Assembly (NCBI GenBank): GCA_009738435.1
Contig: CP046522.1
Span: forward strand, 279,249-343,248
Length of the DNA stretch: 64,000 nucleotides
Source: Clostridium bovifaecis
GTDB lineage: Bacteria; Bacillota; Clostridia; Clostridiales; Clostridiaceae
Direction: 5' to 3'
Below are positions 26,080-37,585 of this stretch, piece after piece; positions within the stretch are counted from its first letter, which is position 1, and every line of letters begins with the position of its first letter. The position numbers and the translations under genes are program-made. A model generated the notes under the pieces. That model had not been told where the DNA came from. It ran no database searches and saw only the letters and a list, made by a program, of their open reading frames with translations.

Positions 26080-26352
26080 TTAACAGCAGAACCAATCGAA
26101 GAATGAGCAGCCTCTGTTATAAGGCTGATGACAAGGGCTTATTGGATAGCATTGACAACAACATTCTTCGTGTTTATGGTGTTTATGATGTTTATGATGA
26201 TGATCATCACAGCAAGAACAAGGATTACAGCAGCGGTTATATTGGGGAGTACATCCACAACCGTATCCGCCATAACCACCATATCCGCGTCCAAAACCAC
26301 CGCGGTTAAATCCGCCTAAGAATAATAAAGGAAACAAGAATGAACCTAGCAT
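26080..26352 (-). CDS. Small Gly-, Cys- and His-rich protein
   Basis: A 90-residue protein of unknown function. A hydrophobic N-terminus (MLGSFLFPLLFLGG) is followed by a Gly/Tyr-rich part (GGFGRGYGGYGGYGCGC), Cys-rich CCNPCSCC, a His/Lys run DDHHHKHHKHHKHEE, then CCCQCYPISPC and a terminal FDWFCC. ATG 26352 has GGAGGTGG upstream, so it is a real gene. Composition suggests metal binding and/or disulfide cross-linking, as in spore coat or exosporium proteins (inference). The 5' leader holds a short hairpin, ACTCCTC / GAGGAGT, near 26380-26403. Confidence 0.65.
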   Translation of the reverse strand: MLGSFLFPLLFLGGFNRGGFGRGYGGYGGYGCGCTPQYNRCCNPCSCCDDHHHKHHKHHKHEECCCQCYPISPCHQPYNRGCSFFDWFCC

Positions 26353-26546: not shown

Positions 26547-26574
26547 TTGACATGGAACCTAATAGTGGTATAAT
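26547..26574 (+). promoter_or_regulatory. Strong sigma-A promoter of the aromatic operon
   Basis: Consensus TTGACA (26547-26552), a 16-base spacer and TATAAT (26569-26574) with an extended TGG element. Predicted start near 26581, ahead of the leader peptide. Confidence 0.85.
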
Positions 26575-26626
26575 TTTCACAATAACAAAATAGGATTAAA
26601 AAATTTTTTGTTTGGAGGAAAAGCTC

Positions 26627-26764
26627 ATGAAAGGCCTTATTAGAAAAGGAATGACAAGACAATATAGCTTTTACTTTAGAAACTGGGGTTATTTTTATAA
26701 CGCTGGTTATTTGTCTTGTGAAAAATTTAAAATTCCTAATTCTAATGAGTTAATTAATACATGA
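26627..26764 (+). CDS. Tyr/Phe/Trp-rich leader peptide of the aromatic operon
   Basis: A 45-residue reading frame starting at ATG 26627 after GGAGG (26614-26618). Residues 13-28 read YSFYFRNWGYFYNAGY: nine of sixteen are Tyr, Phe or Trp. Such enrichment is the mark of an attenuation peptide whose translation stalls when charged aromatic tRNAs are scarce. The stretch lies between complementary segments ACAAGACAA (26654-26662) and TTGTCTTGT (26711-26719), so a stalled ribosome would break this stem. A terminator follows at 26817, then DAHP synthase. No similar named leader in clostridia is known to me. Confidence 0.75.
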   Translation: MKGLIRKGMTRQYSFYFRNWGYFYNAGYLSCEKFKIPNSNELINT

Positions 26765-26816
26765 GAGAACATTTTAAGTAGGTTCAAATCAATAGTGTAT
26801 TATTATAAGTATATCT

Positions 26817-26848
26817 AAGAAGGCTCATTAATGAGTCTTCTTTTTTTA
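26817..26848 (+). terminator. Attenuator terminator before aroF
   Basis: A 12-bp stem (26817-26828 / 26831-26842, one G-T pair; the real loop is probably larger) ending in a T tract, 29 bases before aroF. The segment TAATGAG at 26743-26749 can pair with CTCATTA at 26824-26830 in the terminator 5' arm, offering an antiterminator. Confidence 0.8.
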
Positions 26849-26877
26849 TAAAAAAATTTAACTAGGGGGTTGTTTAT

Positions 26878-27891
26878 ATGATTATTGTAATGAAGCACAA
26901 TGCATCAAGAGAAAGTATTGAAAGAATTAAAGAGGATATTAGTGAAATGGGAGTTCAGGTACACGAGGTCGAAGGAGAGAAGTACTGCATACTTGGGCTG
27001 GTTGGAGATACAACTGTCATTGACCCAAAGCAGATAGAAGCTAATGAAGAGGTTGAAAAGATAGTTCATGTTCAAGAACCTTACAAAAAAGCTAATAGAT
27101 TATTTCATCCTCATGATTCAATAATACCTGTAGGAAGTGAGCTTATTGGGGGCACTAAGCTAGCGGTAATGGCAGGTCCTTGTTCAGTTGAGAGTGAAGA
27201 ACAGATAGTAGAACTTGCAAGACAAGTAAAGAAATCAGGAGCTACATTCTTAAGAGGAGGAGCATTTAAGCCAAGAACTTCTCCATACAGCTTTCAAGGC
27301 ATGGGATTAGATGGGCTTGAGCTATTAAAGATAGCAAAAAAAGAAACAGGACTGCCAATAGTAACAGAGATAATGTCTCCGAAAATGGTAGAGAAGTTTG
27401 TGGAGGATGTTGATGTAATTCAAGTAGGAGCAAGAAATATGCAAAATTTTGATCTACTAAAAGAGTTAGGGAAGACAAACAAGCCAATTCTCTTAAAAAG
27501 AGGATTAGCTGCCACTATAGAAGAATTCTTAATGTCAGCAGAATATATAATGTCTGAGGGAAATGAAAATGTAATATTATGTGAAAGAGGAATAAGAACT
27601 TATGAAACTTACACAAGGAACACGTTGGATTTAAGTGCTGTACCAGTAATAAAAAAACACAGTCATCTACCAGTAATTATAGATCCAAGTCATGCAGGAG
27701 GAATTTGGTGGCTTGTAGAACCATTAGCTAAAGCAGCTGTGGCTGTAGGGGCGGATGGACTCATGATAGAAGTTCATAACAATCCAGCTAAGGCTAAAAG
27801 TGATGGGTCTCAATCACTTAAACCTGAAAAATTCCACAGTCTTATGGAAAAACTATCTATGGTAGCAAAGGCTGTGGATAGGGAAATTTAA
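26878..27891 (+). CDS. aroF: 3-deoxy-7-phosphoheptulonate (DAHP) synthase, type I-beta
   Basis: 337 residues. An N-terminal ferredoxin-like regulatory domain (about 1-70) precedes the TIM barrel, as in Thermotoga and many Firmicutes enzymes that are inhibited by Tyr or Phe. Motifs include MAGPCSVES, GATFLRGGAFKPRTSPYSFQG, LLKRGLAAT, CERGIRTYET and IIDPSHAGG. It condenses phosphoenolpyruvate and erythrose 4-phosphate, the first step of the shikimate pathway. ATG 26878 follows AGGGGGTT. It is the first gene of a nine-gene operon under leader-peptide attenuation. Confidence 0.95.
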   Translation: MIIVMKHNASRESIERIKEDISEMGVQVHEVEGEKYCILGLVGDTTVIDPKQIEANEEVEKIVHVQEPYKKANRLFHPHDSIIPVGSELIGGTKLAVMAGPCSVESEEQIVELARQVKKSGATFLRGGAFKPRTSPYSFQGMGLDGLELLKIAKKETGLPIVTEIMSPKMVEKFVEDVDVIQVGARNMQNFDLLKELGKTNKPILLKRGLAATIEEFLMSAEYIMSEGNENVILCERGIRTYETYTRNTLDLSAVPVIKKHSHLPVIIDPSHAGGIWWLVEPLAKAAVAVGADGLMIEVHNNPAKAKSDGSQSLKPEKFHSLMEKLSMVAKAVDREI

Positions 27892-27912: not shown

Positions 27913-28764
27913 ATGAAGGGGTTAGATTTAAATATAACTATTGTAGGGTTGGGGCTTATAGGGGGCTCATATGCTCTAGCACTAAAAGAATTACAACCAA
28001 AAAAGCTTTATGCAGTTGACAAAGATGAAGAAGCTATAAAGGTTGGCGAGGAAATGGGAATTATTGATAAGGGCTTTATAAGCCCTGAGATCCCTCTAAA
28101 GGAATCTGATTTAATAATAATTTGTATATATCCAAAGGATATAAAAGACTTTGTTAAAAATAATATTGATAACTTTAAGTTAGGTTCAGTAATAACTGAT
28201 GTTACAGGAATAAAAAGAGAATTTGCAGAAGAAATAAATGCAGGGTTAAGAAAAGATATAGATTTTGTATTTGGGCACCCTATGGCAGGAAGAGAATTCA
28301 CTGGGGTAAAATATGCATCAAAGGAAATATTTAAAGGAGCAAACTATATAATAACTCCTACAGAAAGAAATAAAGAAGAAAGCATAAAACTTATAGAAGA
28401 TATTGCAATAGGACTTGGGTGCAAAAATGTAGAGAAGGTGACTGTGGAAAAACATGATGAAATTATAGGATTTACAAGCCAACTTCCTCATGTTATAGCA
28501 GTATCTTTGGTAAATAGCGATAATCTAGGAGTAGATGTAGGAAAATTTACTGGTGACAGCTACAGAGATCTTACAAGGATAGCTAGAATTAATACAAAGC
28601 TGTGGACTGAACTATTTATGGGGAATAGAGAAAATCTGATTAATCAAATAGAAGAGTTTGAGAAAAATATAACAGATGTGAAAACTGCTTTGATAAATAA
28701 AGATATGAAAAGTTTAAGTGAGATTTTAAGTAAAGCTAGCAAAAAAAGAGAGGAGATGTCCTAA
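27913..28764 (+). CDS. tyrA: Prephenate dehydrogenase
   Basis: 283 residues. The N-terminal Rossmann motif VGLGLIGGSYALAL binds NAD; HPMAGREFTGVKYA (about residue 117) holds the active-site His; and HDEIIGFTSQLPHVIAVSLV is a conserved helix. It converts prephenate to 4-hydroxyphenylpyruvate for tyrosine. No C-terminal ACT domain is present, so feedback control would come from DAHP synthase or attenuation. Its stop abuts the aroB start. Confidence 0.93.
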   Translation: MKGLDLNITIVGLGLIGGSYALALKELQPKKLYAVDKDEEAIKVGEEMGIIDKGFISPEIPLKESDLIIICIYPKDIKDFVKNNIDNFKLGSVITDVTGIKREFAEEINAGLRKDIDFVFGHPMAGREFTGVKYASKEIFKGANYIITPTERNKEESIKLIEDIAIGLGCKNVEKVTVEKHDEIIGFTSQLPHVIAVSLVNSDNLGVDVGKFTGDSYRDLTRIARINTKLWTELFMGNRENLINQIEEFEKNITDVKTALINKDMKSLSEILSKASKKREEMS

Positions 28765-29850
28765 TTGAGAGAACTTAGGATAAATCTTAAGGAAAAGACT
28801 TATCTGCTCTATATAGAAAGAGGTCTTTTAGATCGAATAGGAAAAAAAATAAAAAGCATATATACTGACAATGGTATAAAAGATGTATCCGCTAATAAAA
28901 AGGTGATTATTGTAACGGATAAGAATGTAGATAAGTTTTATGGAAATAAGGTAAAAGAAAGCTTAGAAGAGTCAGGCTTTATGTTTTTTAAGGTAGTTAT
29001 AGAGCCTGGAGAGAAAAGTAAGTCTATGGAGGAGCTTATAAAATTATATAATGAGCTTTTGGACATAGGGGTTACAAGAGGAGATCTTATAATAGCACTT
29101 GGAGGAGGAGTTGTTGGTGACTTAACAGGCTTTGCAGCTTCTACATTTTTAAGGGGAATTCCCTATATTCAAATTCCCACTTCGCTTTTAGCTCAGATAG
29201 ACAGCAGCATAGGGGGAAAGGTTGCTGTGGATTTACCAAGAGGTAAAAATTTAGTAGGAAGTTTCTATCACCCAGAGGCAGTGTTTATAGATCCCAATGT
29301 ACTAGATACCTTAGATAAGAGGTTTTTATATGATGGCATGGGAGAGGTGATAAAGTATGGATGTATAAAAGATAAAGAGTTATTCTATAATCTGATTCAG
29401 TATGATGATAAAGAACTACTAAGCAATATGGAAAATATAATTTATACTTGCTGTAGTATAAAGAAAAAGGTAGTTGAAAAAGATGAAAAAGATACTGGAG
29501 ATAGAATGCTTCTAAACTTTGGACACACTATAGGTCATGCTATTGAGAAATATTATAATTTTGAGAAATATACTCATGGAGAGGCTGTTGCTTTAGGAAT
29601 GTATATCATAACTAAGAAGAGTGAAGAGATGAAATTAACTAAAGAAGGAACAGCTGCGTTAATAGCTAAGGTGCTCAATAGACATAATCTAGAGCACGAG
29701 ATTAATTTAGAAGATAAGGATAGTATATTGTCAGCAATATCTTTGGATAAGAAAAATAAGGGAGAGTTTATAAATATAGTTCTTCTTAGAGATATTGGAG
29801 ATAGCTTTATACACGAAATAAAAAGGGTAGAGATGATTGATTTTATTTAA
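28765..29850 (+). CDS. aroB: 3-dehydroquinate synthase
   Basis: 361 residues, NAD- and metal-dependent. Motifs: IALGGGVVGDLTGFAAS, QIPTSLLAQIDSSIGGK, MGEVIKYG and NFGHTIGHAIEKY with the metal-binding His residues. TTG start at 28765 immediately after the tyrA stop, with GAGAGGAGATG upstream. Cyclises DAHP to 3-dehydroquinate. Confidence 0.94.
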   Translation: MRELRINLKEKTYLLYIERGLLDRIGKKIKSIYTDNGIKDVSANKKVIIVTDKNVDKFYGNKVKESLEESGFMFFKVVIEPGEKSKSMEELIKLYNELLDIGVTRGDLIIALGGGVVGDLTGFAASTFLRGIPYIQIPTSLLAQIDSSIGGKVAVDLPRGKNLVGSFYHPEAVFIDPNVLDTLDKRFLYDGMGEVIKYGCIKDKELFYNLIQYDDKELLSNMENIIYTCCSIKKKVVEKDEKDTGDRMLLNFGHTIGHAIEKYYNFEKYTHGEAVALGMYIITKKSEEMKLTKEGTAALIAKVLNRHNLEHEINLEDKDSILSAISLDKKNKGEFINIVLLRDIGDSFIHEIKRVEMIDFI

Positions 29851-29874
29851 ATAAATAGAAGAGGAGATGAGAGG

Positions 29875-31153
29875 GTGGAAAATGTAAGGATTACACCATC
29901 GCCTTTAAGAGGAGAGATAAATATTCCACCTTCTAAAAGCCTAGCTCATAGGGCGGTTATATGCGCTGGACTTTCGGAAGGGATAAGCAATATAAGCAAT
30001 ATTATATATTCACAAGATATTAAAGCTACCATTGAAGGTATGAAAAGTGTTGGAGTAAAAGTTGAGAGCGAAGATAAAAGTGTAAATGTTAAAGGCAAAA
30101 GTCCGTTAGAGCTTATAAAAAACACTATAGATTGCATTGAATCAGGTTCTACTTTAAGATTCTTAATCCCAATAGGGTTATTGACTGGAGAAGAAGTGGC
30201 CTTCAATGGAAGAGGAAAGTTAGTAACTAGACCTCTTAATGTATATTATGAAATATTTAAGAAGCAAGGAATAGAATATGTAACTAATGAAGGAGGACTT
30301 CCTCTAAAAGTAAAAGGTAAATTAAAACCAGATATCTTTTATGTTAAAGGAAATATAAGCTCTCAATTTATAACTGGTCTTATGTTTGTACTTCCTCTAT
30401 TAAATGAAGATTCTAAAATTGTAATGACCACGGAGTTAGAATCTAAGGGATATGTGGATTTAACTATAGATTGCCTTAAAGAATTTGGAGTAGAAGTGCA
30501 GAACAAAGATTACAGGGAATTTTATATTAAAGGAAATCAACAATATAAAAATAGATTATAGAGTTGAGGGAGATTTTTCTCAAGCGGCCTTTTGGATAGT
30601 GGCAGGTATACTAGGCTCAAGTATAAAATGTAAGGATTTAAATATAAATTCCCTTCAAGGAGATAAGGTTATACTTGATATAGTGAGAGAAATGGGAGCA
30701 AAATTAGAAATAAAAGAGGGCTGCATAGAAGTTAAAAACTCGGTTACAAAAGGAATTACAATTGATGCTTCCGAATGTCCAGACCTTGTACCTATACTTT
30801 CCGTCCTTGGAGCAGTAAGTGAAGGAACTACTAAGATAATAAATGCTGAAAGAGTAAGAATTAAAGAATGTGATAGACTAAAGGCTATGGTGACGGAGCT
30901 TAGTAAAATTGGGGCGGAAGTAGAAGAGCTTCATGATGGACTTGTAATTAGAGGAAAGAAAAGTTTAAAAGGCGGAATCGTTGATAGCTGGAATGACCAC
31001 AGAATAGCTATGGCTATGGCAGTTGCATCGATTAAATGTGAGGGAAGTCTTGTAATAACAAATAGCAAAGTAGTTAATAAATCCTATCCTCATTTTTGGG
31101 AAGACTTTAAGATGTTAGGGGGTACAGTAGATGAGTGGAGTATGGGGGAATAA
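29875..31153 (+). pseudogene. aroA: EPSP synthase (3-phosphoshikimate 1-carboxyvinyltransferase), frameshifted
   Basis: The two open halves form one complete EPSP synthase of about 426 residues. The first half (GTG 29875) has PPSKSLAHRAVICAGLSEG and GSTLRFLIPIGLLTG; the second has NDHRIAMAMAVA and the C-terminal YPHFWEDF. The break is in TATAAAAATAG at 30543-30553; adding two bases (AT) gives KNIDYRVEGDFSQAAFW with no loss. Transfers enolpyruvyl from PEP to shikimate 3-phosphate. All other aro genes are intact and aroA overlaps aroC by 23 bases, so a two-base sequence error is much more likely than loss of an essential step. Confidence 0.9.
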
Positions 31154-32207
31154 AATAAAATACTCTATCTTTGGGGAATCTCATGGGAAATCTATAGGAA
31201 TCATTATAGATGGCTTACCTTCAGGAATAGACCTTGACTTAGAAGAAATAGATAGAGAGATGAGAAGACGGGCACCAGGAAAAAATAAGCTAACTACAGC
31301 ACGTAATGAAAAAGATGAATTTGAAATACAAAGTGGATATTTTAACGGAAAAACTACAGGAACTCCTCTATGCATTATGATAAAAAATAGTGATCAGCAT
31401 TCAAGAGACTATGAAAAAACAAAAAATCTTTTAAGACCGGCGCATGCTGACTATACTGGATTTATAAAATATAGTGGCTTTAATGACTATAGGGGCGGAG
31501 GTCATTTTTCAGGAAGGCTTACAGCACCAATTGTATTTGCAGGGGCCGTTGCAAAACAAATTTTGAGGGAAAAGGGGATAATAATTGGAAGTCACATAAA
31601 GAGTATTGGCAGCATTGAAGAAGATTACTTTGATGATATTAATATAAAAGAAGAGCTGTTAAATAGACTAGCTAACAAGGAATTCCCTACTATGGATGAA
31701 GAAAAAGCTTTAAAAATGAAGGACGAAATATTAAAGTGCAAAGAAAAAATGGATTCAATAGGTGGGGTGGTAGAAGGAGCAATTTTAAATCTACCTCCAG
31801 GGATAGGCTCCCCTTTCTTTAATTCTGTGGAGAGTACCATAAGCAGCCTTTTATTCTCCATTCCAGCAGTAAAAGGAGTAGAATTTGGTGCAGGGTTTAA
31901 TATATCTAAAATGAAAGGATCAGAAGCTAACGATGAGTTTTATATTGAAGATGGCAATATTAAAACTTATACAAATAATAATGGAGGGATTTTAGGAGGA
32001 ATTACAAATGGAATGCCGATAGTATTTAGGGTTGCCTTTAAGCCTACGCCATCTATTGCAAAGGAACAGAAAACTGTAGAGTTGGTATCTAAAGAAAATA
32101 CCACTATAAAAATTCAAGGAAGGCATGATCCATGTATTGTACAAAGAGCGGTGCCAATAGTTGAAGCAGCAGCAGCTATAGGAATATTAGAACTAGTTCT
32201 AAGTTAG
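31131..32207 (+). CDS. aroC: Chorismate synthase
   Basis: 358 residues. Family signatures GESHGKSIGIIIDGLPSG, RRAPGKNKLTTARNEKDEFEI, RPAHADYTGFIKYSG, FSGRLTAPIVFAGAVAK and GRHDPCIVQRAVPI are present. It makes chorismate from EPSP using reduced FMN. The start lies inside the end of aroA, so the two are translationally coupled. Confidence 0.95.
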   Translation: MSGVWGNKIKYSIFGESHGKSIGIIIDGLPSGIDLDLEEIDREMRRRAPGKNKLTTARNEKDEFEIQSGYFNGKTTGTPLCIMIKNSDQHSRDYEKTKNLLRPAHADYTGFIKYSGFNDYRGGGHFSGRLTAPIVFAGAVAKQILREKGIIIGSHIKSIGSIEEDYFDDINIKEELLNRLANKEFPTMDEEKALKMKDEILKCKEKMDSIGGVVEGAILNLPPGIGSPFFNSVESTISSLLFSIPAVKGVEFGAGFNISKMKGSEANDEFYIEDGNIKTYTNNNGGILGGITNGMPIVFRVAFKPTPSIAKEQKTVELVSKENTTIKIQGRHDPCIVQRAVPIVEAAAAIGILELVLS

Positions 32208-32288
32208 AAGGTTAGCCGCTGCGCTGAGTTTAGAAGTGGAAAACATAAAGTAATTGATAATGTACAATTGTCAATTTAAAATGGAACT

Positions 32289-32323
32289 GATTACTGATTA
32301 CTGATTACTGATTACTGGTTACT
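32289..32323 (+). repeat. Tandem GATTACT heptamer repeat
   Basis: Four perfect GATTACT units and one GGTTACT unit between aroC and pheA. It is similar in wording to the inverted repeat at 12208-12282. Low-complexity intergenic repeat; no coding or CRISPR character. Confidence 0.7.
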
Positions 32324-32346
32324 AAGAAGATGGGGGACGTTGAGAA

Positions 32347-33537
32347 GTGGATACCTTAGAGAATTTAAGAAATGAAATTGATGACATAGATAGGCAGCTT
32401 ACAGGACTATTTGAAAAGAGAATGGAGACAGTCATAAAGGTAGCACAATATAAGAAGGAAAACAATATACCTATACTAAATAAAAATAGGGAAGAAGAAG
32501 TTATTGAAAAGAATATAAAGTATTTGAAGAACAAAGGTTTTAAGAAGGAAGAAGCAGAATTTCTAAAAAACGTCATGGCTATTAGTAGAAAGGCTCAGGC
32601 AAGGGAAATATTTGAGTATAATGTGGATTTACAAGAAGATAAAAAAAATGAGCTAGAATACACAGTAAGTAATGAAGCTGCTTGCTTACCTAAAAGAAAT
32701 AATATAAATGCAGGCTTTCAAGGGGTACATGGCTCTTTTAGCGAAGAAGCTTTATTGGAGCATTTCGGAGAGGGTGTAATTGCACATAATGTGACGGAAT
32801 TTGAAGATATATTTAAAGCTCTAAAAAATAATGAGATTGACTATGGAGTGCTTCCCATTGAAAATTCATCTACAGGAGGCATAGTTGAGGTATATGATCT
32901 TTTAAGAAAGTATGGATTTTTTATAGTAGGGGAGAGAACCATAAAGGTAAGCCACAATCTGTTAGGAGTAAAGGGAGCTAAAATAGAGGACATAAAAGAA
33001 GTGTATTCTCATCCTCAAGCGCTTCAGCAAAGTAGTGAATTTTTAAAGAATTATCCTAAGTGGAACTGCATTCCATATAGAAACACAGCAGCCAGTGCTG
33101 AGCTTGTAAGAAATGAAAATAGCAAGGAGAAGGCGGCTATTGCTAGTAAAAAGGCTGGGGAAATATATGATTTAGATATAATAAGAGATGATATAAATTA
33201 CAATAAAAATAACTATACAAGGTTTATAATCATAGGAAAAAGTTTGGAGTTAGAAAATAACTATAATAAAATTAGCACTATATTAACCTTGCCCCACAAA
33301 GCAGGTTCACTTTATAATATCTTAAGCATTTTCGCAGAATACAATTTAAGTTTATTAAAAATAGAATCAAGACCAATTATAGATAAGTCTTTTGAATATT
33401 TCTTTTATATTGATTTTGAAGGAAATCTGAATGATAAGGCAGTAAAGGAAGCTATAGGAGAGATAAGAAATAATAGCTATGACTTTAAACTACTAGGAAA
33501 TTATAAGGCACATAATGTTATTGTCCCTATAATATAA
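32347..33537 (+). CDS. pheA: Chorismate mutase / prephenate dehydratase (P-protein)
   Basis: 396 residues in three domains: AroQ-type chorismate mutase (about 1-90, LRNEIDDIDRQLTGLFEKRM), prephenate dehydratase (about 118-295, IENSSTGGIVEVYDLL and the NYTRFIIIG catalytic TRF motif) and an ACT domain (about 305-385) with GSLYNILSIFAEYNLSLLKI and the Phe-binding ESRP motif. GTG start at 32347. It makes phenylpyruvate and should be feedback-inhibited by Phe. Confidence 0.93.
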   Translation: MDTLENLRNEIDDIDRQLTGLFEKRMETVIKVAQYKKENNIPILNKNREEEVIEKNIKYLKNKGFKKEEAEFLKNVMAISRKAQAREIFEYNVDLQEDKKNELEYTVSNEAACLPKRNNINAGFQGVHGSFSEEALLEHFGEGVIAHNVTEFEDIFKALKNNEIDYGVLPIENSSTGGIVEVYDLLRKYGFFIVGERTIKVSHNLLGVKGAKIEDIKEVYSHPQALQQSSEFLKNYPKWNCIPYRNTAASAELVRNENSKEKAAIASKKAGEIYDLDIIRDDINYNKNNYTRFIIIGKSLELENNYNKISTILTLPHKAGSLYNILSIFAEYNLSLLKIESRPIIDKSFEYFFYIDFEGNLNDKAVKEAIGEIRNNSYDFKLLGNYKAHNVIVPII

Positions 33538-33646
33538 GAATTTTAAGCCTTATTTATATAACAATGACTGGATGATTATATCATGGGGCTATTAAAGTCA
33601 ATTTTGCAATGGGATTAGAATCAATGCTTTAGGAAATGAGGTTATT

Positions 33647-34462
33647 ATGTTGAAGGGATTATATGGATTATTAGGAGAAAAGCTTGGACACAGTTTTTCT
33701 CCGGGAATACATTCCTTAATATTTAAAGAATTAGGTTTAGAAGGATACTACCACTTGTTTGAGGTAGATAAAGCACAGTTAGAATATGCAGTCTTAGGAT
33801 TTAACGCCCTTAAGATAAAAGGGGTAAATGTAACCATTCCTTATAAGGTTGATGCTATGAAATATCTAGATAGGATATCACAGGAAGGAAAAAACATAGG
33901 CGCAATTAATACTATTTGTTTTGAAGAGGGGGAGACCATAGGTTATAACACTGACTATTATGGATTTGGAATGATGTTAAATAAATTTAATATAAATCTT
34001 AAATGGGAAAAAGCTGTGATCTTAGGCACTGGGGGAGTATCGAGAGCAGTACTTCAATACCTTTTAGACAATGATGTAAGGGATATTACTTTTGTAAGCA
34101 GAAATATAGAAGAAGTAAAGACTAGATTTAAAGAATTTAACATAATAGAGTATGAAAAGATTAAAGAATTAAGAGATAAAGATATAGTAATCAATTGTAC
34201 CCCGCTTGGAATGTACCCTAAGGTTGAAGTCTCACCTTTAACTAAAGAACAAGTCTCACAATTTAAAATAGTTATAGATTTAATTTATAATCCACAGGAA
34301 ACATTATTATTAAGATATGCTAATGAGAATGGAATACAAGGAATAAACGGACTTTACATGCTTGTTGGGCAGGCGGTAAAAGCACAAGAGCTGTGGAATA
34401 GTGTAAAGATTGATGAAGAAATTGTGGATAAAGTTTATAAACAACTTTCTGATTTGCTTTAG
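33647..34462 (+). CDS. aroE: Shikimate dehydrogenase
   Basis: 271 residues. Substrate site LGHSFSPGIHSLIF, catalytic Lys in GVNVTIPYKVDAM, the NTDYYGF motif, NADP-binding ILGTGGVSRAVLQYL and NCTPLGMYP. Reduces 3-dehydroshikimate to shikimate. ATG 33647 with GAGG upstream; 15 bases ahead of aroK. Confidence 0.94.
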   Translation: MLKGLYGLLGEKLGHSFSPGIHSLIFKELGLEGYYHLFEVDKAQLEYAVLGFNALKIKGVNVTIPYKVDAMKYLDRISQEGKNIGAINTICFEEGETIGYNTDYYGFGMMLNKFNINLKWEKAVILGTGGVSRAVLQYLLDNDVRDITFVSRNIEEVKTRFKEFNIIEYEKIKELRDKDIVINCTPLGMYPKVEVSPLTKEQVSQFKIVIDLIYNPQETLLLRYANENGIQGINGLYMLVGQAVKAQELWNSVKIDEEIVDKVYKQLSDLL

Positions 34463-34477
34463 AAAGGAAAGAAGTTC

Positions 34478-34972
34478 ATGAATAAGTTAAATAAGAATAT
34501 AGTTTTAATAGGCATGCCAGGCTGCGGAAAGACTACCATAGGAAAAAGGCTAGCTAAAAGGCTAAACATAAAATTTTGCGATGTAGATGAGTATATAGTA
34601 GAAAGTGAAGAGAAGAGCATTACTAAAATCTTTGAAGAGGGAGAAGAGCATTTTAGAGAAATTGAAAGTAGAGCAATAAATGAAATATGTAGAATCTATC
34701 CTAAAGTCATAGCTACAGGTGGTGGGGCGATAAAAAGATTTTATAACATAAAAACCTTAAAGGAAAATGGAGTGGTGTTTTTTATAGATAGACCTGTGGA
34801 AGATATTGCAGAAGGAGTAGATATGAAAAGCAGGCCATTATTAAAGGATGGAGTTGAAAAGTTATATAAGCTTTATGAGGAGAGGTATCCTCTTTATAAT
34901 GAATACTGCGATTACAAAATAATTAATTCTAGTATAGAAGAAAGCATTAGTAGAATCCTTTCTTTGATATGA
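34478..34972 (+). CDS. aroK: Shikimate kinase
   Basis: 164 residues. P-loop GMPGCGKTTIGKRLA, shikimate-binding DVDEYIVE and FREIES, ATGGGA, and a lid around SRPLL. Phosphorylates shikimate with ATP. Normal length and no defect. Confidence 0.94.
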   Translation: MNKLNKNIVLIGMPGCGKTTIGKRLAKRLNIKFCDVDEYIVESEEKSITKIFEEGEEHFREIESRAINEICRIYPKVIATGGGAIKRFYNIKTLKENGVVFFIDRPVEDIAEGVDMKSRPLLKDGVEKLYKLYEERYPLYNEYCDYKIINSSIEESISRILSLI

Positions 34973-34985
34973 TTCAATTAGAAAT

Positions 34986-35002
34986 AAATTGCGTGGCAAT
35001 TT
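34986..35002. repeat. AAATTGC-GTG-GCAATTT palindrome between aroK and aroQ
   Basis: A member of the dispersed TTGC-N3-GCAA family, here with 7-bp arms and no strong T tract. Confidence 0.6.
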
Positions 35003-35023
35003 TCATATATGGGGGTGTAAACA

Positions 35024-35458
35024 TTGAAAATATTAGTGATAAACGGTCCAAATATAAATATGTTAGGAATACGAGAAAAACATATTTATGGAACTACAAC
35101 CTATGAGGATTTGTGTAGGTATATAAGAGAAGAAAGTAAAAGTTTGGCTGAAGTGAATATAGTTCAAAGTAATATTGAAGGAGAACTAATTAATTATATA
35201 CAAGGAGCTTATGGTGATTATGATGGAATTGTGATGAATCCTGGAGCATATACCCACTATAGCATTGCTATATATGATGCGTTAGTGGCTGTACAAATTC
35301 CTACAGTGGAAGTACATATAAGTAACATTCATAAGAGAGAAGAATTCAGGCATAAATCTGTTACGGCAGCAGCTTGTCTTGGACAGATAAGCGGATTCGG
35401 AATCTATGGATACATTATGGGAATAATGGCATTAATCAATAATAAGAAGAGCAATTAA
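35024..35458 (+). CDS. aroQ: 3-dehydroquinate dehydratase, type II
   Basis: 144 residues. Type II signature ILVINGPNINMLGIREKHIYG, catalytic Tyr loop at the N-terminus, MNPGAYTHYSIAI, VEVHISNIHKREEFRHKS. Dehydrates 3-dehydroquinate. TTG start at 35024 behind GGGGGTG. Last gene of the aromatic operon; a terminator follows. Confidence 0.94.
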   Translation: MKILVINGPNINMLGIREKHIYGTTTYEDLCRYIREESKSLAEVNIVQSNIEGELINYIQGAYGDYDGIVMNPGAYTHYSIAIYDALVAVQIPTVEVHISNIHKREEFRHKSVTAAACLGQISGFGIYGYIMGIMALINNKKSN

Positions 35459-35484
35459 AGTTTATACTAATCTACGTTATAAAT

Positions 35485-35517
35485 AAAAGGCATGCAGAAT
35501 CTTTGCATGCCTTTTAA
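35485..35517. terminator. Bidirectional terminator ending the aromatic operon
   Basis: A perfect 12-bp stem AAAAGGCATGCA / TGCATGCCTTTT with a 7-base loop and AT-rich flanks, between convergent aroQ and DUF1540 genes. Confidence 0.88.
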
Positions 35518-37276: not shown

Positions 37277-37462
37277 TAAAGAAGTAGCTATTGGCATGTA
37301 GCTGATCAATTGCTATTTACGCTGCAATTTAACTTACTTAATTTACTTGAAGAGGCTTATTAAAAACTAAGAATATGAGATTGCTTTTTTCTTAATTTGT
37401 GTATAATAGGCTTATAATTCTAAAAGTTAATAGTTGTGATAGATAATATAAAATTTAATGTT

Positions 37463-37585
37463 TTCTAGGGTTCCACAATTTTTAATGGTCTGATCCGAGA
37501 GAAAACCTACAGAATAACTGTAGACACGGAGGGGAAAAAGCCTGGGAGGTATCATTTATGATATTTTCTGGGCCTTTTGTGCTGA
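37463..37585 (+). ncRNA. Guanidine-I (ykkC) riboswitch with terminator platform
   Basis: The aptamer core is recognisable: CTAGGGTTCC (37466-37475), GGTCTGATCCGAGAGAAAAC (37487-37506), the variable stem CTACAG-AATAA-CTGTAG (37507-37523), ACACGGAGGGGAAAAAGCC and TGGGAGG. Sequences from AAAAGCC onward can also pair with GGGCCTTTT near 37569-37578 through TATCAT/ATGATA to form a terminator, so ligand should let transcription through. Guanidine-I is preferred over the ppGpp and PRPP ykkC subtypes, but subtype assignment by eye is not final. Confidence 0.85.

What the first reader, a model, noticed from the sequence alone, without database searches (positions are those of the whole stretch)
26547..26877. 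Ribosome-mediated attenuator controlling the whole Phe/Tyr/chorismate operon
A consensus promoter, a 45-codon reading frame with nine aromatic residues in sixteen, a stem flanking those codons (26654-26662 with 26711-26719), a possible antiterminator (26743-26749 with 26824-26830) and an intrinsic terminator 29 bases before aroF are all visible. Firmicutes usually use T-boxes or TRAP for aromatic genes, so a leader-peptide attenuator sensing mixed Tyr/Phe/Trp would be unusual.
Basis: partly seen in the sequence, partly recalled or inferred. Interest (0 to 1): 0.8.

Follow-up and report, generated by a model that had tools for sequence, protein, structure and literature searches.

The report
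Aromatic leader-peptide switch before aroF
A 45-codon reading frame crowded with tyrosine and phenylalanine codons lies between a promoter-like site and a terminator-like hairpin in front of this Clostridium's aromatic amino acid genes; it likely works as a ribosome-operated switch that would turn those genes on when charged aromatic tRNAs run short, and similar frames precede the same gene in many Clostridia and Negativicutes.

Summary
A counterpart precedes aroF in the window's genome and all 7 genus relatives, in 86 of 98 distinct family aroF loci examined, in 39 of 80 named loci (sets overlap by 10), and in 26 of the 31 best loci from the class of Acidaminococcus. Three features support a trp-type attenuator. 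(1) The two ends of the uORF pair (P1) and hide an antiterminator strand; P1 covaries. (2) That strand (ATGAG, facing CTCAT in the terminator arm) is kept as nucleotides in different reading frames or past the stop. (3) Indels in the aromatic core are multiples of three (246 of 247). A hairpin (P2) inside the aromatic codons recurs in Clostridia and Negativicutes. No Rfam RNA reaches threshold here, though the genome has 28 T-boxes. No expression data exist, and in this species' own sequence the modelled switch is clear-cut only for a few stall codons. Prior art: PMC6429828 shows two shikimate-gene uORFs with Phe/Tyr; PMC8632094 has uORFC-13-1. New member of a known kind.

The parts
26547..26574 (+). 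sigma-70 type promoter match TTGACA-N16-TATAAT with TG before the -10; predicted start of transcription near 26581
   Evidence: 12 of 12 matches; a similar arrangement is visible in genus relatives
26614..26618 (+). Shine-Dalgarno GGAGG of the leader ORF
   Evidence: sequence; also in most genus relatives
26627..26764 (+). leader ORF, 45 codons, MKGLIRKGMTRQYSFYFRNWGYFYNAGYLSCEKFKIPNSNELINT
   Evidence: core gap runs multiples of 3 in 246 of 247
26663..26710 (+). aromatic control codons (Y13 to Y28, 9 of 16 F/Y/W)
   Evidence: composition in relatives
26636..26661 (+). strand 1 (5' side of P1): 26636-26645, 26647-26651, 26654-26661
26712..26749 (+). 3' side of P1, containing strand 2: 26712-26719, 26733-26737, 26740-26749
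26681..26708 (+). P2 hairpin inside the aromatic codons (26681-26686 x 26703-26708, 26688-26692 x 26697-26701)
26743..26749 (+). antiterminator strand 2 (TAATGAG)
   Evidence: sequence
26824..26830 (+). strand 3 (CTCATTA): can pair with strand 2 or within the terminator
   Evidence: sequence
26817..26847 (+). intrinsic terminator (stem 26817-26842 and T tract)
26878..27891 (+). aroF (DAHP synthase), first gene after the leader
27913..35458 (+). tyrA, aroB, aroA (in two ORFs), aroC, pheA, aroE, aroK, aroQ: genes presumed to be under the attenuator
   Evidence: terminator-like site 35484-35516 after aroQ

Best explanation
The stretch 26581-26877 is likely a ribosome-mediated transcription attenuator for the Phe/Tyr/chorismate genes: a 45-codon leader ORF crowded with Tyr and Phe codons whose two ends are predicted to pair with each other (1:2), unless the ribosome stalls between them, when the 3' end would pair with the terminator's 5' arm instead (2:3) and so prevent the terminator (3:4). 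Inferred working: with enough charged tRNA(Tyr) and tRNA(Phe) (in this species also tRNA(Trp)) the ribosome runs to the stop codon, covers or passes strand 2, strand 3 stays free, the terminator forms and transcription stops before aroF. When an aromatic tRNA is uncharged the ribosome stalls in the aromatic core, strand 1 cannot hold strand 2, strand 2 pairs with strand 3 and RNA polymerase reads on. Without translation P1 holds strand 2 and the terminator forms. The P2 hairpin inside the aromatic codons would serve as a pause signal for RNA polymerase or as a roadblock that sharpens stalling. Shown by calls: the parts, their conservation, covariation of P1, compensated differences in P2, and the codon-wise indels of the core. 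Inferred: the switch itself, the amino acids sensed, the role of P2 and the reach over the operon.
For: uORF in the window's genome and 7 of 7 genus relatives; at least 7/16 aromatics in 86 of 98 distinct non-paralogous loci of the genus and family searches and in 39 of 80 named loci. P1: mean duplex energy -17.2 kcal/mol against -11.5 (sd 0.33) with 3' strands swapped between species and -8.9 (sd 0.27) with the 5' strand shuffled, 79 loci; on 14 aligned leaders the P1+P2 structure has 83.6% of cells paired against 35.8-46.5% when slid, covariation score 0.202 and 24 cells changed on both sides, each reached by 0 of 500 shuffles. Antiterminator motif in frame 1 in 44, frame 0 in 30, frame 2 in 1, over or past the stop in 8, absent in 2 of 85 family uORFs, so it is kept as RNA, not as peptide; L297 has TTGAG facing CTCAA, a compensated pair. 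Core gap runs multiples of three in 246 of 247 against 86 of 253 after the stop. P2: core folds at -8.0 against -4.7 when recoded synonymously (85 family uORFs) and -12.4 against -7.6 (31 others); 536 of 692 P2 cells pair against 512 (sd 2.4) in shuffles on 76 leaders; core Ser is AGC in 125 of 133 against 63 of 229 outside. Model on 80 loci: P(2:3) 0.66-0.74 with the ribosome stalled in the core, 0.21 without ribosome. The 30 hits opened of 62 found by the leader-peptide profile all precede aromatic genes: 28 aroF, 1 tyrA, 1 aroB.
Against: No expression data. In the window's own sequence P(2:3) is 0.9 for a stall at Y28 but 0.02-0.5 for the earlier aromatic codons with RNAP at 26830 (0.08-0.73 at 26832), is high (0.72) with a ribosome still at the start codon, and is almost nil once RNAP reaches 26838. 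On the full transcript the terminator wins in every state (about 0.74), so the switch needs kinetics that were not modelled. The 0.02 for 'ribosome at the stop' is nearly given by construction. Swapping terminator arms between species lowers the 2:3 score only from 15.6 to 14.7 (sd 0.19) because the motif is so conserved (111 loci). On the 14 leaders two of five measures are not beyond shuffles (pairs with both sides changed 9, reached by 49 of 500; further pair types 24, by 184 of 500), and 6 of 9 pairs of the main P2 helix never vary. Singly, only 26 of 85 family and 16 of 31 other cores fold significantly better than recodings. P1 is weak in some loci (L130 -3.4, L138 -5.4, L181 -5.7, L019 -6.7 kcal/mol). 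No terminator was found by the script in 10 of 122 distinct loci. In 17 of 79 loci strand 2 lies 45 or more bases before the stop, too far for a ribosome at the stop to cover, so termination there must rest on P1 refolding. In the class of Acidaminococcus P1 is weaker (-11.7 against -9.5, sd 0.78, 14 of 25 loci) and CTCAT is in 12 of 25.
Confidence: 0.87

Rival explanations
1. Nascent-peptide sensor: the leader peptide itself arrests the ribosome according to free Phe or Tyr, as TnaC does with Trp (recalled), rather than the ribosome stalling at hungry codons.
For: The core FSWGFYFSAGY is more alike than codon content alone requires, and G-[YF]-[FL] recurs in distant relatives.
Against: F and Y interchange and whole codons come and go in the core; the C-terminal part is read in different frames while its nucleotides stay; the alike non-aromatic residues coincide with P2, where codon choice is biased (AGC 125 of 133).
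Confidence: 0.06
2. RNA-only regulator: P1/P2 form an aptamer or protein site and translation of the uORF is incidental.
For: P2 is a recurring hairpin with different but complementary arms across Clostridia and Negativicutes.
Against: Reading frame is kept: core gap runs are multiples of three in 246 of 247; the aromatic content matches the pathway downstream in the 30 hits opened; no Rfam family at threshold.
Confidence: 0.04
3. The uORF encodes a small functional protein and the terminator merely separates two units.
For: Sources that name such peptides mostly call them hypothetical proteins (120 of 200 listed).
Against: The C-terminal third is kept as nucleotides in several frames; the uORF ends pair with each other and strand 2 with the terminator arm.
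Confidence: 0.02
4. T-box type control (tRNA sensed by RNA without a ribosome).
For: T-boxes are common in this genome (28 over the cut-off) and sit before aroF in L053, L054 and L057.
Against: None at threshold in this leader; none of the 30 genome hits lies here.
Confidence: 0.01

Closest known systems
trp/phe/his-type leader-peptide attenuators (pheL, trpL; recalled)
   Same: Leader ORF with codons of the end products, 1:2 / 2:3 / 3:4 alternative pairings, intrinsic terminator before the first gene.
   Different: Mixed Tyr/Phe (Trp) codons in front of the common pathway plus the Phe and Tyr branches; strand 2 usually lies within the uORF; a recurring hairpin inside the control codons; Clostridia and Negativicutes.
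Two candidate uORFs at shikimate genes, Fig. 6b of PMC6429828 (2019; passages, section 13 and the figure legend seen, figure and supplements not)
   Same: uORFs with Phe and Tyr at shikimate genes; Clostridium novyi was one of the five genomes studied, so one of them may well be this element.
   Different: The text seen does not say which genome they come from, and gives no P1/antiterminator/terminator scheme, covariation test or distribution for them.
uORFC-13-1 motif (PMC8632094; passages seen)
   Same: uORF upstream of aroF, promoter, intrinsic terminator, at least one Phe codon, attenuation proposed.
   Different: 24 representatives, Acholeplasma and environmental sequences only; among 30 loci of the order of an Acholeplasmatales bacterium I see only a few short frames (13-28 codons), not the form with P1 and P2.
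His leader peptides of Firmicutes (PMC2965389, PMC9413887; passages seen) and the leucine-rich ilv attenuator of Staphylococcus aureus (PMC5794164; abstract seen)
   Same: Leader-peptide attenuation in Gram-positive bacteria.
   Different: Other amino acids and genes.
T-box (RF00230)
   Same: Senses tRNA charging and ends in a terminator; used before aroF in L053, L054, L057.
   Different: Not found in this leader; works without a ribosome.

Membership tests
Ribosome-mediated transcription attenuator (trp/phe type) | Translated leader ORF with ribosome site | tested here: met
   ATG and GGAGG present; core gap runs multiples of three in 246 of 247. Translation itself is not measured.
Ribosome-mediated transcription attenuator (trp/phe type) | Codons of the amino acids made by the regulated genes | tested here: met
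   Family cores with Y 85, F 84, W 71 of 85; the 30 profile hits opened of 62 all precede aromatic genes
Ribosome-mediated transcription attenuator (trp/phe type) | Intrinsic terminator before the first structural gene | tested here: met
   found in 112 of 122 distinct loci with the uORF
Ribosome-mediated transcription attenuator (trp/phe type) | Mutually exclusive 1:2, 2:3, 3:4 pairings, supported across species | tested here: met
   compensated pair in L297. Covariation is strong for 1:2; for 2:3 it is mostly conservation.
Ribosome-mediated transcription attenuator (trp/phe type) | Stalling at control codons favours 2:3, completion favours the terminator | tested here: inconclusive
   In silico it holds on average over 80 loci; in the window itself only for some codons, and equilibrium on the full transcript favours the terminator always
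Ribosome-mediated transcription attenuator (trp/phe type) | Expression rises on starvation for Phe or Tyr | not testable with these tools
   needs an experiment
T-box (RF00230) | Match to the covariance model in the leader | tested here: not met
uORFC-13-1 | Match to its consensus (Acholeplasma, upstream of aroF) | not testable with these tools
   the consensus is in a figure that is not held, and no Rfam 15 family matched the leader at threshold; text only
Shikimate uORF candidates of PMC6429828 | Match to the Fig. 6b consensus | not testable with these tools
   figure and supplements not held

The most novel reading that the evidence does not exclude
An old attenuator shared by Clostridia and Negativicutes in which one stretch of RNA is doubly coded: its Tyr/Phe/Trp codons are the sensor, and the same nucleotides form a conserved hairpin (P2) that paces RNA polymerase, while the flanking codons form the protecting stem. 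It would read the pooled charging of aromatic tRNAs and set the whole aromatic pathway in lineages thought to rely on T-boxes.
Probability: 0.45. Interest if true: 0.68.

Novelty: new member of a known kind. Interest (0 to 1): 0.52.

Why it matters
In the papers seen, leader-peptide attenuation by amino acid codons in Firmicutes is reported for few genes (hisS/hisZ and his operons: PMC2965389, PMC9413887, passages seen; ilv: PMC5794164, abstract seen), T-boxes being the usual device. An aromatic attenuator before aroF in much of the family examined and in Negativicutes would explain aromatic amino acid control in many fermenting and gut bacteria, would give a handle for making aromatic compounds, and gives a well-populated case for studying how T-boxes and leader peptides replace each other before one gene.

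Tried and rejected
T-box or other Rfam RNA in the leader: none at threshold; at E up to 10 nine weak hits, the best E 0.05 for a plasmid antisense RNA far below its gathering score. Pfam and NCBIfam on four leader peptides: nothing above a cut-off. Consensus folding of the whole 76-sequence alignment recovered only part of P2 and the terminator, since loop lengths vary; P1 was then tested by duplex energies and on a 14-sequence alignment. The first look at relatives read minus-strand loci unturned and gave meaningless ORFs for five of them; corrected. A strict ribosome-site rule missed L018 and L019 and a wrong start missed L017; corrected. The nascent-peptide reading was considered and put second.

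Rows dropped: one search used 79 of 93 loci (10 duplicates, 4 without the ATGAG/ATGGG motif: L060, L071, L115, L148), so loci with another antiterminator were not tested; one search used 80 of 93 (duplicates and loci without the motif left out); one search used 111 of 112 distinct loci with a terminator; one search kept 76 of 84 distinct sequences; one search kept 25 distinct loci of 31 and tested P1 on 14. Loci without the uORF at 6/16: 56 of 188, among them the 7 paralogues; L174 has only 187 bases upstream, and L067, L095 and L097 under 300. Three loci (L187, L188, L189) were fetched twice and ten named loci repeat unnamed ones; my first count (88 of 108) held the doubles and the paralogues, the count 86 of 98 does not. 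One search examined 16 of the 36 named loci without a uORF. Not in print as an attenuator in Clostridia: by searches; but PMC6429828 shows two shikimate-gene uORFs whose figure and supplements I could not see.

Full report
What is there. The genes that follow are aroF, tyrA, aroB, aroA, aroC, pheA, aroE, aroK, aroQ; aroA is split into two ORFs. The longest terminator-like site downstream lies after aroQ, 35484-35516; two weak ones on the + strand lie inside pheA (33288-33305) and aroK (34877-34892), and the promoter-like hits there (16) are no more than shuffles give (19.5). There are gaps of 139 and 109 bases before pheA and aroE, so internal promoters cannot be excluded.

Is it chance? Nine aromatics in sixteen codons behind a ribosome site came up in 1 of 2000 resampled upstream sequences, in 1 of 200 pieces of T-box loci of the same genome, and in none of seven upstream regions of the paralogous aroF. 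The peptide has a single match in its genome.

Relatives. The window's genome and its 7 genus relatives carry the uORF before aroF. In the family search 187 of 194 genomes have an aroF-like gene. I read the upstream regions of 98 distinct non-paralogous loci from the genus and family searches; 86 have a uORF with at least 7/16 aromatics. Of 80 named loci 39 do, ten of the 80 being repeats of unnamed ones; among the 39 are Clostridium pascui, C. homopropionicum, C. ganghwense, C. magnum, C. tyrobutyricum, an Acetobacterium, Alkalibacter mobilis, a Flavonifractor, Veillonella parvula and an Acidaminococcus (the last two Negativicutes). The more distant ones have other P1 strands, and for a few (L100, L107, L108) no P2 was found, so some may be separate inventions. 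A profile of 19 leader peptides matches 62 of 391 genomes of the class, once each; the 30 hits that were opened lie before aroF (28), tyrA (L213) or aroB (L231). In the class of the Acidaminococcus genome 26 of the 31 best aroF loci have a uORF with 6/16 or more, and four of the other five carry a T-box-like sequence (pattern only). In the order of an Acholeplasmatales bacterium 4 of 30 reach 6/16, as frames of 15 to 28 codons. Of 200 similar proteins in the large database 120 were listed; those with a name are called hypothetical, one also 'MFS transporter' by one source. Pfam and NCBIfam have no model for the four peptides tested.

The RNA logic. The 5' end of the uORF pairs with its 3' end (P1). 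On 79 loci, mostly Clostridium relatives, the mean duplex energy is -17.2 kcal/mol, against -11.5 (sd 0.33) when strands are swapped between species and -8.9 (sd 0.27) when shuffled. On an alignment of 14 leaders, given the window's P1 and P2, 83.6% of cells pair (35.8-46.5% when slid), 24 cells have changes on both sides (shuffled mean 10.8, 0 of 500 as high) and the covariation score is 0.202 (0 of 500); the number of pairs with a change on both sides (9) is reached by 49 of 500 shuffles and the number of further pair types (24) by 184. The 3' side of P1 contains TAATGAG, which is also the complement of CTCATTA in the terminator's 5' arm. Across 85 family uORFs ATGAG or ATGGG follows the core in frame 1 (44), frame 0 (30), frame 2 (1) or over or past the stop (8), and is missing in 2: the nucleotides are kept while the amino acids they would encode are not. 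In the Flavonifractor loci L082 and L087 AATGGGCG, just after the stop, faces CGCTCATT in the terminator; in L297 TTGAG faces CTCAA. Over 111 loci the best helix between this region and the terminator arm scores 15.6, against 14.7 (sd 0.19) with arms swapped between species and 12.5 (sd 0.20) with the segment shuffled; the small gap to the swap control reflects a motif that hardly varies.

P2. Inside the aromatic codons CTGGGGTTAT-TTTT-ATAACGCTGG (window) corresponds to CTGGGGCT...AGCGCTGG in most of the family and to quite different but still complementary arms in Acetobacterium (L062), Acidaminococcus (L112) and loci of its class. On 76 leaders 536 of 692 cells of ten proposed pairs are paired against a shuffled mean of 512 (sd 2.4, maximum 520 in 300 shuffles), although three of the ten (a G-G position, the outermost and the innermost) are mostly unpaired. 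The core folds better than synonymous recodings (family mean -8.0 against -4.7, 26 of 85 singly at p up to 0.05; others -12.4 against -7.6, 16 of 31). Core Ser codons are AGC in 125 of 133 cases against 63 of 229 outside the core. In the 14-leader alignment most P2 pairs do not vary. The role of P2 is unknown; a pause hairpin like the 1:2 hairpin of trp (recalled) is my guess.

Translation. Gap runs in the core columns of the 76-sequence alignment are multiples of three in 246 of 247 cases, against 86 of 253 after the stop codon, as a translated frame predicts.

Does the switch work on paper? With the ribosome's leading edge placed 13 bases past the start of the A-site codon and RNA polymerase just past strand 3, P(2:3) averages 0.66, 0.68 and 0.74 for stalls at the first, middle and last aromatic codon, 0.21 without ribosome, and 0.02 with the ribosome at the stop, the last being nearly so by construction (80 loci). 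In the window itself the effect is clear at Y28 (0.90-0.96) and Y16 (0.50-0.73) with RNA polymerase at 26830-26834, weak at the other aromatic codons, high at the start codon (0.72-0.78), and gone at 26838. On the complete transcript the terminator wins in all states. In 17 of 79 loci strand 2 lies 45 or more bases before the stop, so a ribosome at the stop would not cover it there. The comparative evidence is thus better than the thermodynamic model of this one sequence.

Other mechanisms. The genome holds 30 T-box hits, 28 over the cut-off, none here. Of 16 uORF-less named loci examined, 3 have a T-box directly before aroF (L053, L054, L057). So T-box and leader peptide seem to replace each other before the same gene.

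Prior print. PMC6429828 (2019; passages, section 13 and the Fig. 6 legend seen) reports two candidate uORFs with Phe and Tyr at shikimate genes among motifs from five genomes, one of them Clostridium novyi; one may be this element. PMC8632094 (2021; passages seen) reports uORFC-13-1 before aroF in Acholeplasma and proposes attenuation. His leader peptides in Firmicutes are in PMC2965389 and PMC9413887 (passages seen), a leucine-rich attenuator in Staphylococcus aureus in PMC5794164 (abstract seen). I therefore call it a new member of a known kind; what is added here is the P1/P2/antiterminator logic with its covariation, the frame-independent antiterminator and the reach into Negativicutes.

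Noticed in passing
29875-30561 and 30599-31153: aroA (EPSP synthase) is split into two ORFs that match the N- and C-terminal halves of TIGR01356; either an assembly error or a broken gene. The genome's listed completeness (94.9) is lower than that of its genus relatives (98-100).
   Followed up: no
37454-37550: Guanidine-I riboswitch (RF00442, 70.2 bits) on the + strand, upstream of small ORFs of unknown function.
   Followed up: no
26080-26352 (-): Small Gly/Tyr-rich protein with a His/Cys-rich tail (DDHHHKHHKHHKHEECCCQC), encoded divergently just upstream of the leader.
   Followed up: no
L213 and L231: The same type of leader precedes tyrA (L213) or aroB (L231) instead of aroF.
   Followed up: partly
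L053, L054, L057: A T-box lies directly before aroF in loci without the leader peptide; T-box-like sequences (pattern only) also in L298-L301 and L249, L250, L255, L256.
   Followed up: partly
L268, L271, L274, L276: Tiny Tyr-rich frames of 13-16 codons 164-173 bases before aroF in relatives of an Acholeplasmatales bacterium, possibly related to the uORFC-13-1 motif.
   Followed up: no
26633-26644 and 26814-26825: In this species strand 1 can also pair with the terminator's 5' flank; P1's lower helix drops from 0.97 to 0.03 in the no-ribosome model while RNA polymerase is at 26830-26836 and returns (0.96) on the longer transcript.
   Followed up: partly
L243, L302, L303: Veillonella-type leaders (MTNQISL.AKQYFYWFFIQRTGKELFV) keep an aromatic core and a strong hairpin but have a different terminator arm, and strand 2 was not identified.
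   Followed up: no
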